Shown piece after piece: positions 8,082 to 17,098 of a stretch of DNA of 64,000 nt. The notes under the pieces are model-generated. The model was not told the DNA's origin. It was given only the letters and a program-made list of their open reading frames with translations, and did not search any database. Position 1 is the first letter of the stretch, and every line of letters starts with the position of its first letter. The position numbers and the translations under genes are program-made. Source of the DNA: Vulcanisaeta souniana JCM 11219 (GTDB lineage Archaea > Thermoproteota > Thermoprotei > Thermoproteales > Thermocladiaceae); the NCBI RefSeq assembly GCF_026000775.1, contig NZ_AP026830.1:62001-126000 (forward strand). The letters are read 5' to 3'.

Positions 8082-8380
8082 TACTAATAAATCATGATTT
8101 GCCATTTTAAATTTTACCCTATAATCCTGATTAGAAATTCTAAGTTTTATCTGTTATAAAGGACCATAAATAACTGATAGAATATCAAACACATAAGCAA
8201 GTAGCATTTAATAAACTAAATACATAATGAATGGGGTACTACCATGTACAGTATTAAAACAATTTTATTTATACCCTATATACATGAAATTATTTATAAA
8301 ATAATGCGTCATAATTATGTTGAGTTATTAATTATATGATAAGTAAAGCTTTAATGCAATTAACCTTATATTTAATATGT

Positions 8381-10417
8381 ATGGTTGAGCTCACGAGAGA
8401 CGTAGCTCTTAAGATGTATGAATTGATGGTTAAAATACGTTATTTCGAGGACACGATTAGAAAGTGGTATTGGGAGGGTAAGGCGCCAATCTTCGATATT
8501 GGTTCCGGTCCAATACCTGGTGAAATGCACCTGGCCGCTGGTCAGGAGCCTGCGTCTGTCGGAGTTATGATTCACTTAACTCCAGCCGATGCAGTATTTG
8601 CGACTCATAGGGCTCACCATGTGGCCATCGCCAAGGGTGTTGACTTGAAGAAAATGGCGGCTGAGATTTTTGGTAAGAAGACTGGACTTGGTAAGGGTAA
8701 GGGTGGGCACATGCACTTATTCGACTCGATCGTCAACTTCGCATGTAGTGGAATTGTTGGTGCTGCGTTTCCGCAAGCCATTGGCGCCGCACTTGGCTTT
8801 AAACTTCAGGGGAAGAATAATGTGGCGGTTGCTTACGGTGGTGATGGTGCAGCCAATCAGGGGACGTTCCATGAGGCAATTAACCTAGCTGCAATTTGGA
8901 AGTTACCGGCAATATTCGTGATTGAAGATAATAAATGGGCAATATCGGTGCCTAAGTCGAAGTCAACAGCGATAGCTAGGAATAGTGATAGAGCCGTGGC
9001 CTATGGAGTACCTGGAGTCTTCATACCTGATAACGATTTATTTGCCCTATTTGAGGCTGCTAGGGAGGCTGTTGATAGGGCTAGGAGGGGTGAGGGACCA
9101 ACACTCATTGAAATTGAGACCTATAGATTCTATGGGCATTTTGAGGGTGATCCCGAAATTTATAGGCCTAAGGAGGAGGTTGAGGAACTTAGGAAGAGGG
9201 ATCCGGTAATTAGAGTTAAGGATGAGTTAATGAGGAGGGGTTGGCTTGATGATAAGGAGGACGCCCAAATACAGGCTAGGGCTAGGGCTGAGGTTGATGA
9301 GGCCGTGAAGTTCGCTCTGGACAGTCCATACCCAGAGTCCGAGGAGGCTCTTAGAGATGTATTTTCATTACCAGAACCGGTTGGTAAGGTTGATGTTGGT
9401 TGGCCATCCACAAGTGGTAGGGTATTACCTGCTTATATGGCGATTTCCGAGGCAATAGCCCAGGAGATGGAGCGTGATTCAAGGGTTTTCTACATGGGTG
9501 AGGATGTATGCGCCTATAATGGCATATTCGGCATAACTCAGGGCTTATGCTCGAAATTCGGGCCTGATAGGGTTAGGGATACTCCGATTTCCGAGGCTGG
9601 GTTTATAGGGGCTGCGGTTGGTGCGGCGGCAGTCGGTATGAGACCGATAGTGGAGTTAATGTTTGTGGATTTCCTGGGTGTGACTTTCGACCAAGTATTT
9701 AATCACATGGCTAAGAACCACTACATGTCTGGTGGGCAGGTTAAAATGCCCATAGTATTGACAACAGCAATCGGCGGTGGCTATAACGATGCAGCCCAGC
9801 ACTCTCAAGTACTTTATGCCTTATTTGCTCATGTACCTGGGCTTAAGGTTGTTGTACCTTCCAACTCATATGATGCTAAGGGATTAATGATAAGTGCCAT
9901 TAGGGATGATGATCCCGTGGTGTACATGTTCCACAAGAAGATACTTGGCCTGCCCTGGATGTCATATCCAAAGACTGCGCTGACGCATGTACCTGAGGAG
10001 GAGTATACAGTACCAATTGGTAGGGCCAGGATTGCTAGGGAGGGTAGGGATGCTACCATAATTACGGCTGGTCTCATGGTACACTATGCATTGGAGGCTG
10101 CTGATAAATTGGTCAATGAGGGTATTAGTGTTGAGGTGGTTGATTTGAGGACGATAAAGCCACTTGATAGGGAGACAATAGTGAATAGCATTAAGAAGAC
10201 TGGCAGGGTACTCGTGGTTGATGAGGACTACCTGAGCTTCGGCCTGACTGGTGAGGTGGCGGCCATAGTCTCCGAGGAAGCTCATGGGTACTTGAAGGCG
10301 CCATTTAAGAGGTTAGCTGTGCCAGATGTACCGATACCCTATAGTAGGCCTCTTGAGCAGTTCGTAATACCGTCAACGGACAAAATAGTGAGTGCCATTG
10401 AGGATTTAATGAAGTAA
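8381..10417 (+). CDS. Fused E1alpha-E1beta of a 2-oxoacid dehydrogenase complex
   Basis: A thiamine-diphosphate decarboxylase component with both chains on one polypeptide (678 residues). The alpha half has ATHRAHHVAIAKG, GKGGHMHLFD and the ThDP motif starting GGDGAANQGTFHEA and ending EDNKWAIS. The beta half begins near GRVLPAYMAISEA and shows FYMGEDVC, RVRDTPISEAGFIGAA, DAAQHSQVLYALFAHVPGLKVVVPS and a typical C-terminal transketolase domain. Fused E1s are known in some bacterial branched-chain and acetoin-type complexes. The frame opens at 8336, but CTTTAATG about 28 bases before 8381 and homology of MVELTRDVALKMYELM to E1alpha starts favour 8381. It shares long near-identical stretches with the separate E1 pair downstream, so the two arose by duplication. 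Confidence 0.9.
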   Translation: MVELTRDVALKMYELMVKIRYFEDTIRKWYWEGKAPIFDIGSGPIPGEMHLAAGQEPASVGVMIHLTPADAVFATHRAHHVAIAKGVDLKKMAAEIFGKKTGLGKGKGGHMHLFDSIVNFACSGIVGAAFPQAIGAALGFKLQGKNNVAVAYGGDGAANQGTFHEAINLAAIWKLPAIFVIEDNKWAISVPKSKSTAIARNSDRAVAYGVPGVFIPDNDLFALFEAAREAVDRARRGEGPTLIEIETYRFYGHFEGDPEIYRPKEEVEELRKRDPVIRVKDELMRRGWLDDKEDAQIQARARAEVDEAVKFALDSPYPESEEALRDVFSLPEPVGKVDVGWPSTSGRVLPAYMAISEAIAQEMERDSRVFYMGEDVCAYNGIFGITQGLCSKFGPDRVRDTPISEAGFIGAAVGAAAVGMRPIVELMFVDFLGVTFDQVFNHMAKNHYMSGGQVKMPIVLTTAIGGGYNDAAQHSQVLYALFAHVPGLKVVVPSNSYDAKGLMISAIRDDDPVVYMFHKKILGLPWMSYPKTALTHVPEEEYTVPIGRARIAREGRDATIITAGLMVHYALEAADKLVNEGISVEVVDLRTIKPLDRETIVNSIKKTGRVLVVDEDYLSFGLTGEVAAIVSEEAHGYLKAPFKRLAVPDVPIPYSRPLEQFVIPSTDKIVSAIEDLMK

Positions 10418-10472
10418 GGCGATACATTGAAGTTATTAATGCCTCATATTTAAAAATAAAAGGTGATCACTA

Positions 10473-11450
10473 TTGCGTAAGGTTGGCCTGGTCGTTAATC
10501 CAGTGTCTGGAACTGACATTAGGAGAGCTACATCGACAGCTGGGTTTATTGATAACATGCAAAAGGCACGCATTGTTAAGAGTATACTAAGGGGTATTGA
10601 GTCCGCGGGTGTTGATGAAGCCCTAATAATGCCTGATTTCTATGGAATTGCTGCCCATGCACTTTGGGACTTACCACAATTAAGCCTTAAATGGAGTTTT
10701 ATAGACATGAAACCCAGGGGTGACTATACAGATACTGTTAATGCCGTTAGGTACATGGTTAAGGAGAACGTAGGTAGTATAGTGATCCTCGGTGGCGATG
10801 GCACCGTTAGAATAGCATCAAAGGTCTCCGGCGATACCCCACTACTCCCAATATCCACTGGCACTAATAATGTAATACCGTACTTCATAGACGGCACCCT
10901 AGCAGGTATCGCAGCTGCTGCGGTGGCTAATGGCCTAGTTAATGACAGTGTCACGTATAGGTTAAGGAGAATATTACTGATAATAAATGGCGAAGTAATT
11001 GATCAGGCATTGGTTGATTTGGGGGCTACGCTTTACCCATTCAGGGGCGCTAGGGCTGTTATTGACCCTAACATGGTAACTGAGGCCTTCATATCACTGG
11101 TAAAACCACTTAGTATTGGTTTGGCATCAATAGGCAGTGTTCTGAGACCCAATGGCTTACCTAATGACAAAATACTTCATGTGACCATTGGATCAAGGTT
11201 TAGTATTAGGGCCGTACTAATGCCCGGTTATGTGACTAACATGGGTATTGATAGGGTTGAGGAGATAGGCCTTGGTGTTAAGGTGCCAATAAGTAGGGCG
11301 TACACAATTGAGCTTGATGGTGAGAGGGAAGTGGAGATTTTCAACGGTGATTATGTTGAGGTAATGGCTGATGATAGGGGTCCCGTCATCATAGATGTCA
11401 ATAAGGCAATGCAGGAATTATTTTTAAGGCAATGTTCTAACTGCCCGTAG
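10473..11450 (+). CDS. AcoX-like ATP-NAD kinase-fold protein, copy 1
   Basis: A 325-residue protein of the ATP-NAD/AcoX kinase family. It has the N-terminal VGLVVNPVSGTDIRRA (phosphate-binding start), the GGDGT motif in VILGGDGTVRIA, and PISTGTNNVIPYF, which replaces the GTxNDFA-type loop of diacylglycerol kinases. The C-terminal beta domain ends with AYTIELDGERE. AcoX genes are known from acetoin dehydrogenase operons, where their role is unsettled; NAD phosphorylation is inferred from fold only. The TTG start at 10473 follows an AGGTGATC ribosome site at 10461-10468. It follows the fused E1 by 55 bases and is convergent with E1beta, leaving two bases between them. Confidence 0.8.
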   Translation: MRKVGLVVNPVSGTDIRRATSTAGFIDNMQKARIVKSILRGIESAGVDEALIMPDFYGIAAHALWDLPQLSLKWSFIDMKPRGDYTDTVNAVRYMVKENVGSIVILGGDGTVRIASKVSGDTPLLPISTGTNNVIPYFIDGTLAGIAAAAVANGLVNDSVTYRLRRILLIINGEVIDQALVDLGATLYPFRGARAVIDPNMVTEAFISLVKPLSIGLASIGSVLRPNGLPNDKILHVTIGSRFSIRAVLMPGYVTNMGIDRVEEIGLGVKVPISRAYTIELDGEREVEIFNGDYVEVMADDRGPVIIDVNKAMQELFLRQCSNCP

Positions 11451-11452
11451 GA

Positions 11453-12451
11453 TTAGGGCTTCTTGAAGTAATAAACGTCCTTTATAGCCTTCATTATCTT
11501 CTCGGTGCTTGGTATCCACTCACGCTCCAGAGCCTCACTAAATGGTACTGGTGTTGCTGGCGGTGTGACTAACTTAACGGGAGCCTTAAGATGCTCAAAG
11601 GCCTTAGAGACTGCGAGAGCTGCTATGTCGGTTGCGAAGGATGCCCTTGGGTAACCTTCATCAACCACCACTAGCCTACCCGTCTTCCTTATTGAATTCA
11701 GTATGGTGTCTTCATCGAGTGGTACTAGGGTCCTTGGATCAATAACCTCAACACTAATACCCTCATTAGTCAGTTTCTCTGCGGCTTCGAGAGCCTTGTG
11801 ACCCATCCATGCAGTTGCGACCACAGTTACGTCCTTACCCTCCCTCTTAACATCAGCAACACCAAACGGTATTTTATAGGGTCCCTCGGGTACTGGGCCT
11901 CTAACGCCATAGAGCATCTTGTGCTCAATGAATATTACTGGGTCCTCCTCATCAAGTGTTGCTGTTAGTAGTAGGCCCTTGGCATCGTATGGTGTTGAGG
12001 GCATTACAACCTTAAGGCCAGGAACGTGGATAAATATCGCATGCAATGACTGGGAGTGTTGGGCGGCTGCTTGAATACCTGCGCCGCACACTGTCCTGAG
12101 GACCATGGGTATCTTAACCTTACCACCTGTCATGTACCTAAGCTTAGCCGCCTGGTTGTATATTTGGTCGAAGGCTACGCCCAGGAAGTCTATGAACATG
12201 AGCTCAGCAACAGGTTTCAAACCCATCATTGCGGTGCCCACGGCAGCTCCTATAAACCCAGACTCAGCTATTGGAGTATCCCTAACCCTCTCTGGGCCGT
12301 ATTTGTCGTATAGACCCATTGTAACTCCAAATACACCACCATAAACACCCACATCCTCACCCATTATTACTACCCTCTTATCAACGGACATTGCATAGTC
12401 CAACGCCTCATTTAGGGCCTGGACAAACGTTATCTCCCTCGTGCTCGCCAT
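11453..12451 (-). CDS. 2-oxoacid dehydrogenase E1 component, beta subunit
   Basis: The beta chain of a ThDP-dependent E1, about 332 residues, normal for the family. Conserved parts are ITFVQALNEALDYAM, IMGEDVGVYGGVFG, RVRDTPIAESGFIGAAVG, AAQHSQSLHAIFIHVPGLKVVMPS and the C-terminal KTGRLVVVDEGY. It pairs with the alpha gene just upstream (stop 12462, ribosome site GGTGAT at 12456-12461, ATG at 12451). The substrate is not readable from sequence; neighbours resembling acetoin clusters (AcoX) suggest acetoin, pyruvate or branched-chain 2-oxoacids. Confidence 0.92.
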   Translation of the reverse strand: MASTREITFVQALNEALDYAMSVDKRVVIMGEDVGVYGGVFGVTMGLYDKYGPERVRDTPIAESGFIGAAVGTAMMGLKPVAELMFIDFLGVAFDQIYNQAAKLRYMTGGKVKIPMVLRTVCGAGIQAAAQHSQSLHAIFIHVPGLKVVMPSTPYDAKGLLLTATLDEEDPVIFIEHKMLYGVRGPVPEGPYKIPFGVADVKREGKDVTVVATAWMGHKALEAAEKLTNEGISVEVIDPRTLVPLDEDTILNSIRKTGRLVVVDEGYPRASFATDIAALAVSKAFEHLKAPVKLVTPPATPVPFSEALEREWIPSTEKIMKAIKDVYYFKKP

Positions 12452-12461
12452 ACTCATCACC

Positions 12462-13472
12462 TCACTCCCACCTCCAAACTAATACTCCATTTGTCGGCCT
12501 TGCAAATACATCCTCATAAAGCTCCTCTGGGCCTGGGTATGGACTGTCCAGAGCGAACTTCACGGCCTCATCAACCTCATTAGACACACGCTTCCATACT
12601 GCATCAAGCTCCTCCCTAGTTGCCATGCTTCTCTCGAGCAGGTACTTCTCGAATAACTTAATTGGGTCCTTATTGTTCATCCACCACTCAAGCTCATCCT
12701 TAGACCTATAGATCTGTGGATCACCCTCAAAGTGCCCCCTGAACCTATATGTCCTGGCCTCTATTAGTGTTGGTCCCTCACCCCTCCTAGCCCTATCAAC
12801 AGCCTCCTTTGTTGTCTCGTAAACTGCCAGTACGTCCTGCCCATCAACGCTCACGCCAGGTATTCCATAGGCCTTTCCTCTCTCGGCAACGCTGGTTATT
12901 AATTGCTGCTTCGAGTAGTGAAGTGATATTTGATATAGATTATTCTCACATACGAATACAACGGGTAACTTCCAAATTGCAGCTAGGTTAATTGCCTCAT
13001 GGAAGTTCTGCTGATTTGAGCCTCCCTCCCCGAAGAAGGCGACTGCGACGTTATCCTTACCCAATAACTTAAAGGCCAATGCAGCGCCAACTGCATGTGG
13101 TATACCGCCGCCAACCATGCCGTTTGCACCAAGCATACCAATACTTGGGTCAGCAATGTGCATTGAGCCTCCCTTACCCTTGTTACTACCCGTCCTCTTG
13201 CCAAATAATTCGGCAAAGGATGCCTTCAGGTCACCGCCCTTGGCGATGTAGTGGCCGTGGCTCCTGTGGGTGCCCGTAATCACATCGCCGGGTTTGAGCG
13301 CGGCCATGACGCCAGTGGCCACGGCCTCCTCACCGACATATAGGTGTACGAAGCCCTTGATCTTACCCTGGGCGAAGAGTTCTGCGGCCTTATTTTCATG
13401 GAGCCTTATCTTGACCATGGTCTCGTACATCCACATAAGCTTATCCTTACTTAACTCCTCCCTCTGTGCCAT
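12462..13472 (-). CDS. 2-oxoacid dehydrogenase E1 component, alpha subunit
   Basis: The alpha chain of the same E1. It has the THRSHGHYIAKGGD loop, NKGKGGSMHIAD, the ThDP-magnesium motif opening GEGGSNQQNFHEA and closing with ENNLYQIS, and PTLIEARTYRFRGHFEGDP, which is nearly repeated in the fused E1. The diphosphate motif reads GEG where most relatives have GDG. The frame runs to 13520, but the ATG at 13472 has a GCTTAAAA TATA box about 26-31 bases upstream, so a leaderless 336-residue product is likely. It is the first gene of an alpha-beta operon. Confidence 0.92.
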   Translation of the reverse strand: MAQREELSKDKLMWMYETMVKIRLHENKAAELFAQGKIKGFVHLYVGEEAVATGVMAALKPGDVITGTHRSHGHYIAKGGDLKASFAELFGKRTGSNKGKGGSMHIADPSIGMLGANGMVGGGIPHAVGAALAFKLLGKDNVAVAFFGEGGSNQQNFHEAINLAAIWKLPVVFVCENNLYQISLHYSKQQLITSVAERGKAYGIPGVSVDGQDVLAVYETTKEAVDRARRGEGPTLIEARTYRFRGHFEGDPQIYRSKDELEWWMNNKDPIKLFEKYLLERSMATREELDAVWKRVSNEVDEAVKFALDSPYPGPEELYEDVFARPTNGVLVWRWE

Positions 13473-13585
13473 AACAATGTTTCTAATTTTACTTCTTTTA
13501 AGCTTTGCTATGATTTGCATATTTATGGTCTATGAATGTAATTCATGACAAAAAGTAAATAAATAGTAATGACTTATGTTCATTT

Positions 13586-14596
13586 ATGCCTAGAAACCCC
13601 GTGATAGGTCTCGTGATTAATCCACAGGCAGGTAGGGACATTAGGAGGTTGGTTGCCTACGCCAGTGTCTTTGATAATTCTGAGAAGATGAACATCGTGC
13701 GTAAATTAATAATGACCTTACTCGATCTTGGCATTAATAGGTACGTAATAATGCCTGAGCCCGAGGGCATCGTAACCACTGCATTGCACTCACTACCAAG
13801 TAATGCTATTGAGGGTATTGAGTATGAGTATGCCCCAATAAGGGTTAGTGGTACTTGGGTTGATACTTATGATGCCGTTAGGTACATGATTGGTAGAGTT
13901 GATGCATTAATAGTCCTTGGTGGTGATGGTACGAATAGGATAGTTGCAAAGACGGGTATTGAGGTGCCTGTCATGCCCATATCCACGGGTACGAATAACG
14001 TGTTTCCATACATGATAGAGGCCACTATTGCGGCGGAGGCAGTGGCTGCAATAGTACTTGGTTATGTTGGAGTTGAGGAGGGTGCGTACAGGAGTAAGGT
14101 GATTAGGATTTATGAGGATGGTGAGTATAGGGATGTGGCCATCGTGGATGCTGTATCCACTTCCTATCAGTACATAGGTGCCAGGGCAATTTGGGAACCT
14201 GAGTACATTAGGGAGGTTTTCACAGTGCTTAGTGCACCATATAATATTGGCCTATCATCAATAGCCGGCCTATTTAAGGAGGTTGGGCATGAGAATGATG
14301 AGGCAATATACGTTAGGTTATCAAGGGATGGAACTGGTAAGTCGTTTAGGACTGCAATAACGCCAGGCCGCATGAGTAGGCTCAGCGTTGAGGAGGTCAG
14401 GGAGGTGAGGCTTGGTGAGAGGGTTCGGTTAAGTCCTGGTTCGACGTTAATAGCCCTGGATGGTGAGAGGGAGTTCATGGTTGATCCAGGGAGTGAATTG
14501 GTGGTTGAGGCTGTCAGGAGAGGCCCATTTGTCATTGATTATAGAAAAACCCTCAGTATGGCGAAGGAAAGGGGGTTCTTCGAATCATTCAAGTAA
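13586..14596 (+). CDS. AcoX-like ATP-NAD kinase-fold protein, copy 2
   Basis: A paralogue of the 10473-11450 protein with the same plan: IGLVVNPQAGRDIRRL at the start, GGDGTNRIVAKTG, MPISTGTNNVFPYM and a C-terminal STLIALDGEREF segment. Each of the two E1 sets thus has its own AcoX-like neighbour. Transcription is divergent from E1alpha; AGTAAATAAATAG at about 13552-13564 lies at TATA distance from the ATG. Its last 12 bases overlap the convergent lplA gene. The biochemical role of AcoX in 2-oxoacid dehydrogenase loci is not established. Confidence 0.8.
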   Translation: MPRNPVIGLVINPQAGRDIRRLVAYASVFDNSEKMNIVRKLIMTLLDLGINRYVIMPEPEGIVTTALHSLPSNAIEGIEYEYAPIRVSGTWVDTYDAVRYMIGRVDALIVLGGDGTNRIVAKTGIEVPVMPISTGTNNVFPYMIEATIAAEAVAAIVLGYVGVEEGAYRSKVIRIYEDGEYRDVAIVDAVSTSYQYIGARAIWEPEYIREVFTVLSAPYNIGLSSIAGLFKEVGHENDEAIYVRLSRDGTGKSFRTAITPGRMSRLSVEEVREVRLGERVRLSPGSTLIALDGEREFMVDPGSELVVEAVRRGPFVIDYRKTLSMAKERGFFESFK

Positions 14597-15376
14597 TTCC
14601 CTGGGTATTTCCACACTTATGAATTCTCTACCGAAGACCCATTCAGGCCTATTATACTTATTATAATATAGGTACTCAGCAAGTCTGAGTTCACGTTCAG
14701 TTAATTCATCCCTATAGTACTCGAAGCCCAGGTACTCCGAGTAACCCCTGAGTAACGCATACTTAACATCATCCATGTCCTTACCTGTTAGGTCATAGAC
14801 ATTACCAACCCTATGACTGACCTGGGTAATACCCTTATCCTGAAGCTTGGTCTTGGGCACCTTAAGGACCCTGGCAAGCATATCTAGGTTGCTACTTATG
14901 AGCATGGTTGCGTGGAATAGCACGAAGCCCTCCCTCAATCCCGCGGCTGAGCCAAGGACCTTCCTATCATTAATCTCCACATCATTAAGTCCCGGGCTCT
15001 CCGCCCTAATACCAAGCATCTTAAAGGCCAGTAATACTGGTTTTATCATTGCTTCGTACATCCTAATAACATCATTACTAACCCCATAAATATCAGGTAT
15101 TATGACGGAGTATATTAGGTTGCCGAGGTCCTGATAAACGGCGCCACCGCCGGTGTCCCTCTTGGCTATTTGAACGTTGTACTGCTGAACCACGTCCATG
15201 TTAACCTCCTCCTCAGCAATCTGGAACTTACCAATGATCACCGCATTCCTATGTCTCCAGAACCAGAGGGTTGGTGGTGACTTACCAAGCAACATGAGCC
15301 TAAATATCGCCTCCTCAACCGCCAGGCTCATCCTTGGGTTATCCAAGAACTCGTGCTCCACGAGCCTAACTCTCAT
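14585..15376 (-). CDS. lplA: Lipoate-protein ligase A, catalytic large subunit
   Basis: This enzyme activates lipoate to lipoyl-AMP and transfers it to the lysine of lipoyl domains. The sequence has the biotin/lipoate ligase fold markers: NPRMSLAVEEAIFR, FWRHRNAVIIGKFQ, the RDTGGGAVYQDLGNL motif and GRKVLGSA-like NDRKVLGSAAG. It lacks the C-terminal accessory domain of E. coli LplA; that part is encoded separately just upstream (lplB), as in Thermoplasma. The ATG at 15376 overlaps the end of lplB; a GTG at 15385 is an alternative. It is expected to lipoylate the adjacent E2 fusion protein. Confidence 0.93.
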   Translation of the reverse strand: MRVRLVEHEFLDNPRMSLAVEEAIFRLMLLGKSPPTLWFWRHRNAVIIGKFQIAEEEVNMDVVQQYNVQIAKRDTGGGAVYQDLGNLIYSVIIPDIYGVSNDVIRMYEAMIKPVLLAFKMLGIRAESPGLNDVEINDRKVLGSAAGLREGFVLFHATMLISSNLDMLARVLKVPKTKLQDKGITQVSHRVGNVYDLTGKDMDDVKYALLRGYSEYLGFEYYRDELTERELRLAEYLYYNKYNRPEWVFGREFISVEIPRELLE

Positions 15377-15647
15377 GGTGAGCACCCATTATTGCTTCCA
15401 CGAAGTCCTCCTCAGTAACGAAGGGCACCTTAACACCACTACTGAAGAACTCATGAATAACCCTACTAACATCACCCCTACTGAATTTAACACCAGTCAA
15501 CGACTTCTCAAGCATGAGCAATGCCTCCTCTGGATACATGAAGAAGTCACCCGTTATCCTAATCCAGGTTATCCTACCATCATCACTAAGTCTCAACCTA
15601 ACTCTTATCAAACCCTTCTTAGCCTTATACTCATTAATTAAGGACAT
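15366..15647 (-). CDS. lplB: Lipoate-protein ligase accessory small subunit
   Basis: A 93-residue protein matching the separate C-terminal domain of two-part lipoate ligases. It has KKGLIRVRLRLSDDGRITWIRITGDFFMYPEEALLMLEKSL, given here only for position (residues about 10-50), followed by a helical end. In the archaeal two-protein enzyme this subunit is needed for lipoate activation. It precedes and overlaps lplA by 11 bases, so both are probably cotranscribed. Its promoter is shared with the divergent E2 gene. Confidence 0.85.
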   Translation of the reverse strand: MSLINEYKAKKGLIRVRLRLSDDGRITWIRITGDFFMYPEEALLMLEKSLTGVKFSRGDVSRVIHEFFSSGVKVPFVTEEDFVEAIMGAHHES

Positions 15648-15668
15648 CTATAAATAAAGTTCTGGTCA

Positions 15669-15680
15669 ATATTTAAAAAT
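15669..15680. promoter_or_regulatory. Single palindromic TATA element serving lplB-lplA and the E2-OsmC gene
   Basis: ATATTTAAAAAT-like sequence is centred at about 15674, some 27 bases from both the lplB ATG (15647, leftward) and the E2 ATG (15701, rightward). Only 53 bases separate the two starts, and no second TATA-like element fits. One TBP site could therefore drive both leaderless transcripts, coupling lipoate ligase to its target. Confidence 0.55.
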
Positions 15681-15700
15681 TCCCACTAGGTGCAATTGTT

Positions 15701-17098
15701 ATGCTTATTACAGTACCCAATCTGTGGAATTACGATAGGTACGGGCCAGGAGTCATCACAGAGTGGTACAAGAAGGAGGGTGACCTAGTGAAGAAGAAGG
15801 AACCCCTGTGCCAAATAATGGTCATTAAAGCCACATACATAGTGGAGAGTCCAATAGATGGTAAATTAACGAGGATAATAGCCCAGAAGGGCACTAAGGT
15901 CAAGCCTGGCGATCCACTCGTGGAGATTGAGGAGGTGGCCGCGCCGCCAGCACCAACGCCAGTGCCCGCACCACAGCCAGCACCACAGGTTATCACCGCA
16001 CCCGAGGTTAAGGAGTACTCAGTAATTAAGATCGAGGGTCTTAGGAGAGTTATTGCTGACAGGATGACCGAGAGCCTGAGAACCGCAGCACAGTACACAT
16101 TACACATGGATGCCGATGCTACAGAGTTAGTGGAGCTCAGAGAGTCAAGATTTAAGGATTACTCATACACGGAACTACTCTCATACATAGTAATTAAGGC
16201 GCTTAAGGACTACCCAAGCCTTAATGCCCACGTTGTTAATGATGAAATGAGAATATTCAACCATGTACACCTAGGCATCGGAATACAAACGGATAATGGT
16301 CTCCTCGTGGGTGTCGTTAAGAATGCCGATACTATGGATCTGGATGCCCTTGCCAAGGGCATTAAGAGGGTTATTGACGATGTTAGGCAAGGCAGGGCAA
16401 TACCGGAGGAATTGACTGGGTCTACATTCACAATAAGTAACCTGGGAATGACGGAGGTCATTTACTTCACACCAATAATAAACCCGCCGGAGGTTGCGAT
16501 ACTCGGTGTTGGGAAGATTAGGGACATAAACGGTAAGAAACTCATGCCATTAAGTCTAACCCTTGATCACAGGGTAATTGATGGTTATGTTGGTGCCCAA
16601 TTCCTGGGTAGACTCAAGGAATTGATTGAGAAACCACACGAAGTACTGCCTGGACTACCACCTCCACCCGAGGTTTCCTTCAACCTAACCGCAATATCAC
16701 TATCCAACACTAAGATTGAGGCTACCATAAGGAACTTCAGGGTAATGGTTGATGAGCCTGAGGATGCGGGAGGCACAAACGCAGCACCAAACCCAATAGA
16801 ATACCTACTACTCGCTTTAGCCGGGTGTATGAATGTGACAATTAGGAAGATAGCCAGGGAGAGAGGCATTAAGATAGACTCAATGCAATTATCAATAACT
16901 GGATCACTAAATCCAGCTAAGTTCGAAGGAACAGCAAAAACAGGGAGGGCGGGCCTAACACGCATAAACATTGAACTAAGCATATCAACAACAGCACCAA
17001 GGGATGTAATAAACGACATAATTAAGGAAGCTGAAGAAAGATGCCCAGTACACGACACACTAACCCAAGGAACGCAAATAAAAATCACGATCAAATAA
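15701..17098 (+). CDS. 2-oxoacid dehydrogenase E2 (lipoyl acyltransferase) fused to an OsmC peroxidase-like domain
   Basis: Three domains on 465 residues. Residues 1-79 are a lipoyl domain with Lys43 in VIKAT as the lipoylation site (the usual DK is IK here). A Pro/Ala-rich linker (80-107) follows. Residues 108-315 are the acyltransferase core, ending in SLTLDHRVIDG with catalytic His290. Residues 325-465 are a full OsmC/Ohr-like domain: Glu367 in NPIEY, Cys376 in LALAGC, Cys448 in EERCPVHDTL, matching the dithiol peroxidase pair. The peripheral-subunit-binding domain that normally holds E1/E3 is absent. Bacterial Ohr-type peroxidases are known to take electrons from lipoylated proteins, so the fusion suggests an in-built peroxide sink for the dihydrolipoyl arm (inference). 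Start ATG has a TATA box 24-29 bases upstream. Confidence 0.9.
   Translation: MLITVPNLWNYDRYGPGVITEWYKKEGDLVKKKEPLCQIMVIKATYIVESPIDGKLTRIIAQKGTKVKPGDPLVEIEEVAAPPAPTPVPAPQPAPQVITAPEVKEYSVIKIEGLRRVIADRMTESLRTAAQYTLHMDADATELVELRESRFKDYSYTELLSYIVIKALKDYPSLNAHVVNDEMRIFNHVHLGIGIQTDNGLLVGVVKNADTMDLDALAKGIKRVIDDVRQGRAIPEELTGSTFTISNLGMTEVIYFTPIINPPEVAILGVGKIRDINGKKLMPLSLTLDHRVIDGYVGAQFLGRLKELIEKPHEVLPGLPPPPEVSFNLTAISLSNTKIEATIRNFRVMVDEPEDAGGTNAAPNPIEYLLLALAGCMNVTIRKIARERGIKIDSMQLSITGSLNPAKFEGTAKTGRAGLTRINIELSISTTAPRDVINDIIKEAEERCPVHDTLTQGTQIKITIK

What the first reader, a model, noticed from the sequence alone, without database searches (positions are those of the whole stretch)
15701..17098. E2 acyltransferase fused to an OsmC peroxidase-like domain
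The chain carries a lipoyl domain (Lys43), an acyltransferase core (His290 in DHRVIDG) and a complete OsmC domain with Glu367, Cys376 and Cys448. The peripheral-subunit-binding domain is missing. Bacterial Ohr/OsmC-type peroxidases are known to use lipoylated proteins as reductant, so this fusion would join electron donor and peroxidase on one protein. It could act as a peroxide sink or as a bypass of E3 for reoxidising the dihydrolipoyl arm. I know of no description of this fusion.
Basis: partly seen in the sequence, partly recalled or inferred. Interest (0 to 1): 0.85.

Follow-up and report, generated by a model that had tools for sequence, protein, structure and literature searches.

The report
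Lipoyl acyltransferase fused to OsmC-like domain
In a heat-loving archaeon, the swinging-arm (E2) subunit of a 2-oxoacid dehydrogenase complex is fused to a domain related to peroxide-destroying enzymes that take electrons from such arms; the fusion is real but very rare, and no function has been tested.

Summary
Window 15701-17098(+) is one 465-aa ORF: lipoyl domain (Lys43), no peripheral-subunit-binding domain, acyltransferase core (His290, Asp294) and a complete OsmC-fold domain (Cys376, Cys448, Glu367). It is not a frameshift: a congener carries it at 87% identity with a purely synonymous junction, and another keeps a rearranged E2-OsmC remnant. No other fusion appeared in 81 genomes of the class, about 400 of the phylum, 398 Pseudomonadota, 72,556 plasmids or 50,697 phages. 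Its lipoyl domain is the only one found in the genome; no GcvH was found. Two E1 sets and a two-part lipoate ligase flank it, but no E3. In another archaeon (G294) an OsmC gene and a stand-alone E2-core gene sit in tandem beside the same kind of E1/lipoyl cluster. 'E3 bypass' is possible but untested: an E3-like gene is present, yet it occurs genus-wide even without lipoyl proteins. Best explanation: a cis-acting, dihydrolipoyl-fed two-cysteine reductase on the E2 core. A new domain architecture, not a new chemistry.

The parts
15701..17098 (+). E2-OsmC fusion gene, 465 aa
15701..15934 (+). lipoyl domain, residues 1-78, Lys43; closest relatives found are stand-alone lipoyl proteins (66% identity in G159, 56% in G294, 65-68% in two Thermoproteota MAGs)
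15935..16012 (+). Ala/Pro-rich linker, residues 79-104, where other E2s have the peripheral-subunit-binding domain
   Evidence: alignment A3, disordered in model
16013..16648 (+). acyltransferase catalytic core, residues 105-316, His290/Asp294; model close to the Thermoplasma E2 core 3rqc (TM 0.91 on the target)
16667..17095 (+). OsmC-like domain, residues 323-465: Glu367, Cys376, Cys448; model pLDDT 94, best structural match 1lql (TM 0.87)
15366..15647 (-). LplB, lipoate-protein ligase small subunit, divergent from the fusion (53-bp intergenic gap)
   Evidence: NF053749 above cut-off
14585..15385 (-). LplA, lipoate-protein ligase
   Evidence: TIGR00545 194 bits, below its full-length cut-off of 280
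13586..14596 (+). AcoX-like NAD-kinase-fold protein (copy 2)
   Evidence: PF01513 above cut-off
12462..13520 (-). E1 alpha (split set)
   Evidence: TIGR03182 370 bits, just below its cut-off of 393.85
11453..12460 (-). E1 beta (split set)
   Evidence: NF006667 above cut-off
10473..11450 (+). AcoX-like NAD-kinase-fold protein (copy 1)
   Evidence: PF01513 above cut-off
8336..10417 (+). fused E1 alpha-beta, 693 aa
   Evidence: PF00676, PF02779, PF02780; about 71% identical to those of G294 and G159

Best explanation
The gene encodes the only lipoyl-bearing E2 subunit found in this archaeon, with a C-terminal OsmC-like two-cysteine domain. Most likely the dihydrolipoyl arm, charged when E1 and the E2 core have made acyl-CoA, also swings to the OsmC domain and reduces its Cys376-Cys448 disulfide; Cys376 then reduces a hydroperoxide (or a related oxidant such as a polysulfide). 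This would give the complex its own lipoyl-fed antioxidant step, and it would let some of the arm be reoxidised without E3. OsmC proteins work as dimers and E2 cores as trimers or higher, so the OsmC domains would pair between neighbouring E2 subunits. Shown here: domain architecture, conservation of the residues, purifying selection, the cluster, and exclusivity of the lipoyl domain. Inferred: lipoylation of Lys43, the electron transfer, the oxidant, the pairing.
For: All three domains pass Pfam cut-offs. Cys376, Cys448 and Glu367 are unchanged in G000, G025 and G018. OsmC part dN/dS 0.07-0.14. Lipoate ligase genes are adjacent and this is the only Biotin_lipoyl domain found in the genome, with no GcvH, so the arm next to the OsmC domain is the only lipoyl arm seen that E1 could use. 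Ohr and OsmC disulfides are reduced by lipoylated proteins, not by thioredoxin or GSH systems (PMC8945050). OsmC of Thermococcus kodakarensis reduces inorganic and organic peroxides (PMC8773360), and M. genitalium OsmC MG427 reduces hydroperoxides with DTT (PMC9262362). In G294 an OsmC gene (both Cys) lies 6 bases upstream of a stand-alone E2-core gene, divergent from an E1 alpha-beta/lipoyl/AcoX cluster of the same kind.
Against: Not Ohr by profile (20.9 bits against 88.85); Glu offset by one residue and no catalytic Arg identified. The G294 adjacency could be chance: my rough estimate is about 0.1-0.2 such neighbours expected in the 71 E2-bearing genomes searched, and G294's OsmC is only 30% identical over 103 aa. 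Related clusters in G159 and two MAGs show no adjacent OsmC, and G159 has none over the Pfam cut-off. The fusion is intact in only two of 12 species of the genus. Position 448 is Ser in two of the 12 aligned OsmC members. Dimer versus trimer geometry was not modelled.
Confidence: 0.5

Rival explanations
1. E3 bypass: the OsmC domain is the main oxidant of the dihydrolipoyl arm, replacing E3, and electrons go to an abundant acceptor such as polysulfide or peroxide rather than NAD+.
For: No PSBD to tether an E3; no E3 gene identified in the cluster, whereas relatives G026, G031 and G042 of the same order have E3 directly after E2. The E3-like protein shared by both fusion-bearing species (L096 type) is also present at 78-92% identity in congeners in which no lipoyl domain was found, so it is not tied to the complex.
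Against: An E3-like protein over its family cut-off (611 bits against 432) is encoded elsewhere, and E3 need not be clustered. Peroxide is unlikely to be abundant enough as a bulk acceptor (general knowledge).
Confidence: 0.15
2. Independent passenger: two neighbouring genes fused by loss of a stop; the OsmC domain works as a peroxidase or thiol protein on its own, with no electron transfer from the lipoyl arm.
For: Narrow distribution; OsmC part evolves faster than the E2 part; in G018 a remnant with the OsmC domain persists although no lipoyl domain or E1 was found there.
Against: The fusion has persisted through large synonymous divergence (dS about 0.6-1.4 by region) with a conserved junction, and the partner is the one protein class known to reduce Ohr/OsmC.
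Confidence: 0.2
3. Structural or regulatory module: the OsmC fold serves as a dimerising element that links E2 trimers, or as a redox sensor that gates the complex, rather than as a catalyst.
For: OsmC and Ohr are homodimers (PMC8945050); some OsmC-fold proteins lack parts of the active site (PMC8945050 on YhfA).
Against: Both cysteines and the Glu are conserved in all three sequences; a pure scaffold would not need them.
Confidence: 0.1

Closest known systems
2-oxoacid dehydrogenase E2 (PF00198 with PF00364)
   Same: lipoyl domain with Lys, flexible linker, catalytic core with DHRxxDG; next to E1 alpha and beta genes
   Different: no PSBD; extra C-terminal OsmC domain; no E3 gene identified in the cluster
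OsmC-like proteins (PF02566; NF041052; structures 1lql, 2opl)
   Same: fold (TM 0.87-0.88); NPxEYLLxALxGC motif shared with 2opl, second Cys of the RCPxxxTL motif shared with 1lql
   Different: these are stand-alone; here fused to an E2; just under the NF041052 cut-off; 2opl has Ser for the second Cys and 1lql lacks the Glu
Ohr / OsmC lipoyl-dependent peroxidases (TIGR03561)
   Same: two-Cys arrangement and OsmC fold; lipoylated proteins are their reductant
   Different: profile score far below cut-off; Glu at Cys-9 rather than Cys-10; no catalytic Arg identified; electron donor on the same chain
Other OsmC fusions (400-aa 'osmotically inducible protein C' 9wo1; OsmC/YcaO TIGR03549)
   Same: OsmC as part of a larger protein
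   Different: partner is not a lipoyl acyltransferase
Stand-alone lipoyl protein / E1 alpha-beta / AcoX-like clusters of G294, G159 and two MAGs
   Same: E1 alpha-beta about 71% identical (G294, G159); lipoyl protein 56-68% identical to the fusion's N-terminus
   Different: lipoyl protein is a separate gene; in G294 E2 core and OsmC are separate genes too

Membership tests
2-oxoacid dehydrogenase E2 | lipoyl domain with acceptor Lys | tested here: met
   PF00364 over cut-off, K43
2-oxoacid dehydrogenase E2 | catalytic core with His/Asp of DHRxxDG | tested here: met
   PF00198 225 bits; H290, D294
2-oxoacid dehydrogenase E2 | peripheral-subunit-binding domain (usual, not universal) | tested here: not met
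   alignment gap and disordered linker
2-oxoacid dehydrogenase E2 | lipoylation and acyltransferase activity | not testable with these tools
   needs protein
OsmC-like superfamily (PF02566) | OsmC profile and fold | tested here: met
   81 bits against 27.5; AlphaFold pLDDT 94, PDB OsmC hits E down to 1e-11
Ohr peroxidase (TIGR03561) | family profile cut-off | tested here: not met
   20.9 bits against 88.85
Ohr peroxidase (TIGR03561) | two active-site cysteines | tested here: met
   C376 and C448
Ohr peroxidase (TIGR03561) | catalytic Glu ten residues before the peroxidatic Cys (XfOhr E51/C61) | tested here: inconclusive
   Glu367 is nine residues before Cys376; spatial equivalence not measured
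Ohr peroxidase (TIGR03561) | catalytic Arg in the N-terminal loop (XfOhr R19) | tested here: inconclusive
   residues 326-343, the first hairpin, hold no Arg; R344 and R347 lie after it and are not conserved in the subfamily; no superposition done
Ohr peroxidase (TIGR03561) | lipoyl-dependent peroxidase activity | not testable with these tools
   needs assay
NF041052 OsmC-related (seleno)protein | curated cut-off of 95 bits | tested here: inconclusive
   94.8 bits

The most novel reading that the evidence does not exclude
A 2-oxoacid dehydrogenase complex that disposes of the electrons of its own lipoyl arm through a built-in OsmC module to peroxide or sulfur species, making E3 and NAD+ optional.
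Probability: 0.15. Interest if true: 0.85.

Novelty: new variant of a known kind. Interest (0 to 1): 0.6.

Why it matters
Ohr/OsmC enzymes are thought to draw electrons from lipoylated dehydrogenase subunits, but that link rests on biochemistry with separate proteins. A natural fusion of the two is genome-level support for it and gives a single, presumably thermostable protein in which arm, acyltransferase and thiol reductase can be tested together, including for OsmC-like branches whose function is open.

Tried and rejected
Frameshift or misassembly: rejected. OsmC gene next to E2 in G274/G269: a divergent hydroxyacid dehydrogenase gene lies between them in G274 and the second Cys is Ser, so not counted. 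E2 matches with read-through stops in G360 and G392 that seemed to run on into OsmC: only the E2 aligns; nothing OsmC-like follows. Haladaptatus halobius E2 followed by 'OsmC': real tandem, but the OsmC is 5'-truncated and six related haloarchaeal E1 clusters show no annotated adjacent OsmC, so it is a lead only. Viral contigs: no relative; phages: the listed matches cover E2 only. The second Thermoproteota draw largely repeated the first. The genome-contig scan used the lipoyl domain, so fusions elsewhere with another lipoyl type would be missed.

Full report
What is there. The window lies in a single-contig archaeal genome of 2,432,148 bases. ORF 15701-17098(+) codes for 465 aa. Pfam finds Biotin_lipoyl at 4-76, 2-oxoacid_dh at 105-316 and OsmC at 358-462, all above their cut-offs. 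The stretch 79-104 is an Ala/Pro linker; the PSBD present in E2s of the phylum is missing.

It is a real gene. G025 of the same genus has the same protein at 87% identity without stops. Codon comparison gives dN/dS of 0.025 for the lipoyl part, 0.056 for the core and 0.13-0.14 for the OsmC part; the nine junction codons differ by five synonymous and no nonsynonymous changes. In G018 a 246-aa remnant (end of the E2 core plus OsmC) remains, its DNA inverted relative to the neighbouring amidase gene. No lipoyl domain and no E1 homologue were found in G018. The remnant's private substitutions in core and OsmC are still mostly synonymous (46 to 15), so either the break is recent or the remnant is used.

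Distribution. No other E2-OsmC fusion appeared in 81 genomes of the class, in 398 genomes of the phylum, in 398 Pseudomonadota, in the plasmid collection or in the listed phage matches. Halobacteriota and Thermoplasmatota chromosomes could not be surveyed.

Surroundings. The window has a fused E1 alpha-beta (8336-10417), a split E1 beta/alpha pair (11453-13520), two AcoX-like NAD-kinase-fold proteins, LplA and LplB, and the fusion. The fusion's lipoyl domain is the only Biotin_lipoyl match in the genome, and GcvH was not found in any of the 12 genus genomes. E1 homologues were found only in G000 and G025. No E3 was identified in the cluster. Of five Pyr_redox_dim proteins in the genome, L095 is MerA-type, L096 exceeds a dihydrolipoyl dehydrogenase cut-off, and L097 is E3-like but below cut-off. 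L096-type proteins occur widely in the genus, 72-92% identical, in species without detectable lipoyl domains; G025 has only three Pyr_redox_dim matches, one of them L096-type and the other two much weaker.

Origin. The lipoyl part is closest to stand-alone lipoyl proteins in clusters with fused E1 alpha-beta and AcoX-like genes (G159, G294 and two MAGs). In G294 the E2 core is also a separate gene, with an OsmC gene 6 bases upstream in tandem, divergent from that cluster. This is what an unfused precursor could look like, but G294's OsmC is only 30% identical over 103 aa, and one such neighbour among 71 genomes is not strongly beyond chance (my estimate, 0.1-0.2 expected).

The OsmC domain. 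An alignment-based model has pLDDT 94. Its best PDB matches are OsmC-like proteins 1lql, 2opl and 2onf (TM mostly 0.83-0.88); most Ohr and OsmC proper match less closely (0.68-0.78). NCBIfam places it at the edge of 'OsmC-related (seleno)protein' and far from Ohr. Both cysteines and a Glu are present; the Glu is one residue nearer the Cys than in Ohr, and the first hairpin has no Arg. Activity without that exact constellation is not excluded: M. genitalium MG427, an OsmC, reduces hydroperoxides (PMC9262362); 1lql is, from memory and not checked, its M. pneumoniae orthologue, and it lacks the Glu.

Mechanism. The likeliest reading is a dihydrolipoyl-fed two-cysteine reductase acting in cis. The lipoyl part of that reading rests on published work with separate proteins (PMC8945050, PMC5962072, PMC4069020); the oxidant, the direction of flow and the assembly are inference. 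In archaea, lipoylated complexes track aerobic life (PMC3904984); Vulcanisaeta is described as anaerobic (PMC8773360), so, if the genus is right, a complex with its own antioxidant module would make sense there. E3 bypass, an independent passenger domain and a structural role remain open.

Verdict. Confirmed observation, rare and apparently undescribed architecture, function untested: a new variant of known parts.

Noticed in passing
window 8336-13520: Two E1 sets (fused alpha-beta and split) share one genome-wide lipoyl domain; each has its own AcoX-like NAD-kinase-fold protein.
   Followed up: partly
L077 8287-9027: In G018 the fusion gene survives as an inverted 702-bp fragment with an open frame while no lipoyl domain or E1 was found in that genome.
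   Followed up: partly
L131 4038-9663: Haladaptatus halobius plasmid: lpdA, fused E1 alpha-beta, E2, then a 5'-truncated OsmC reading frame in tandem.
   Followed up: partly
L074 9909-11096: G294: OsmC and stand-alone E2-core genes in tandem, divergent from an E1/lipoyl/AcoX cluster.
   Followed up: partly
window 15648-15700: The 53-bp gap between LplB and the fusion holds an AT-rich TATA-like stretch (TTTAAAAATT) that could serve both directions.
   Followed up: no
L081 2024-2584: A second, stand-alone OsmC in the own genome has Ser in place of the second Cys.
   Followed up: no
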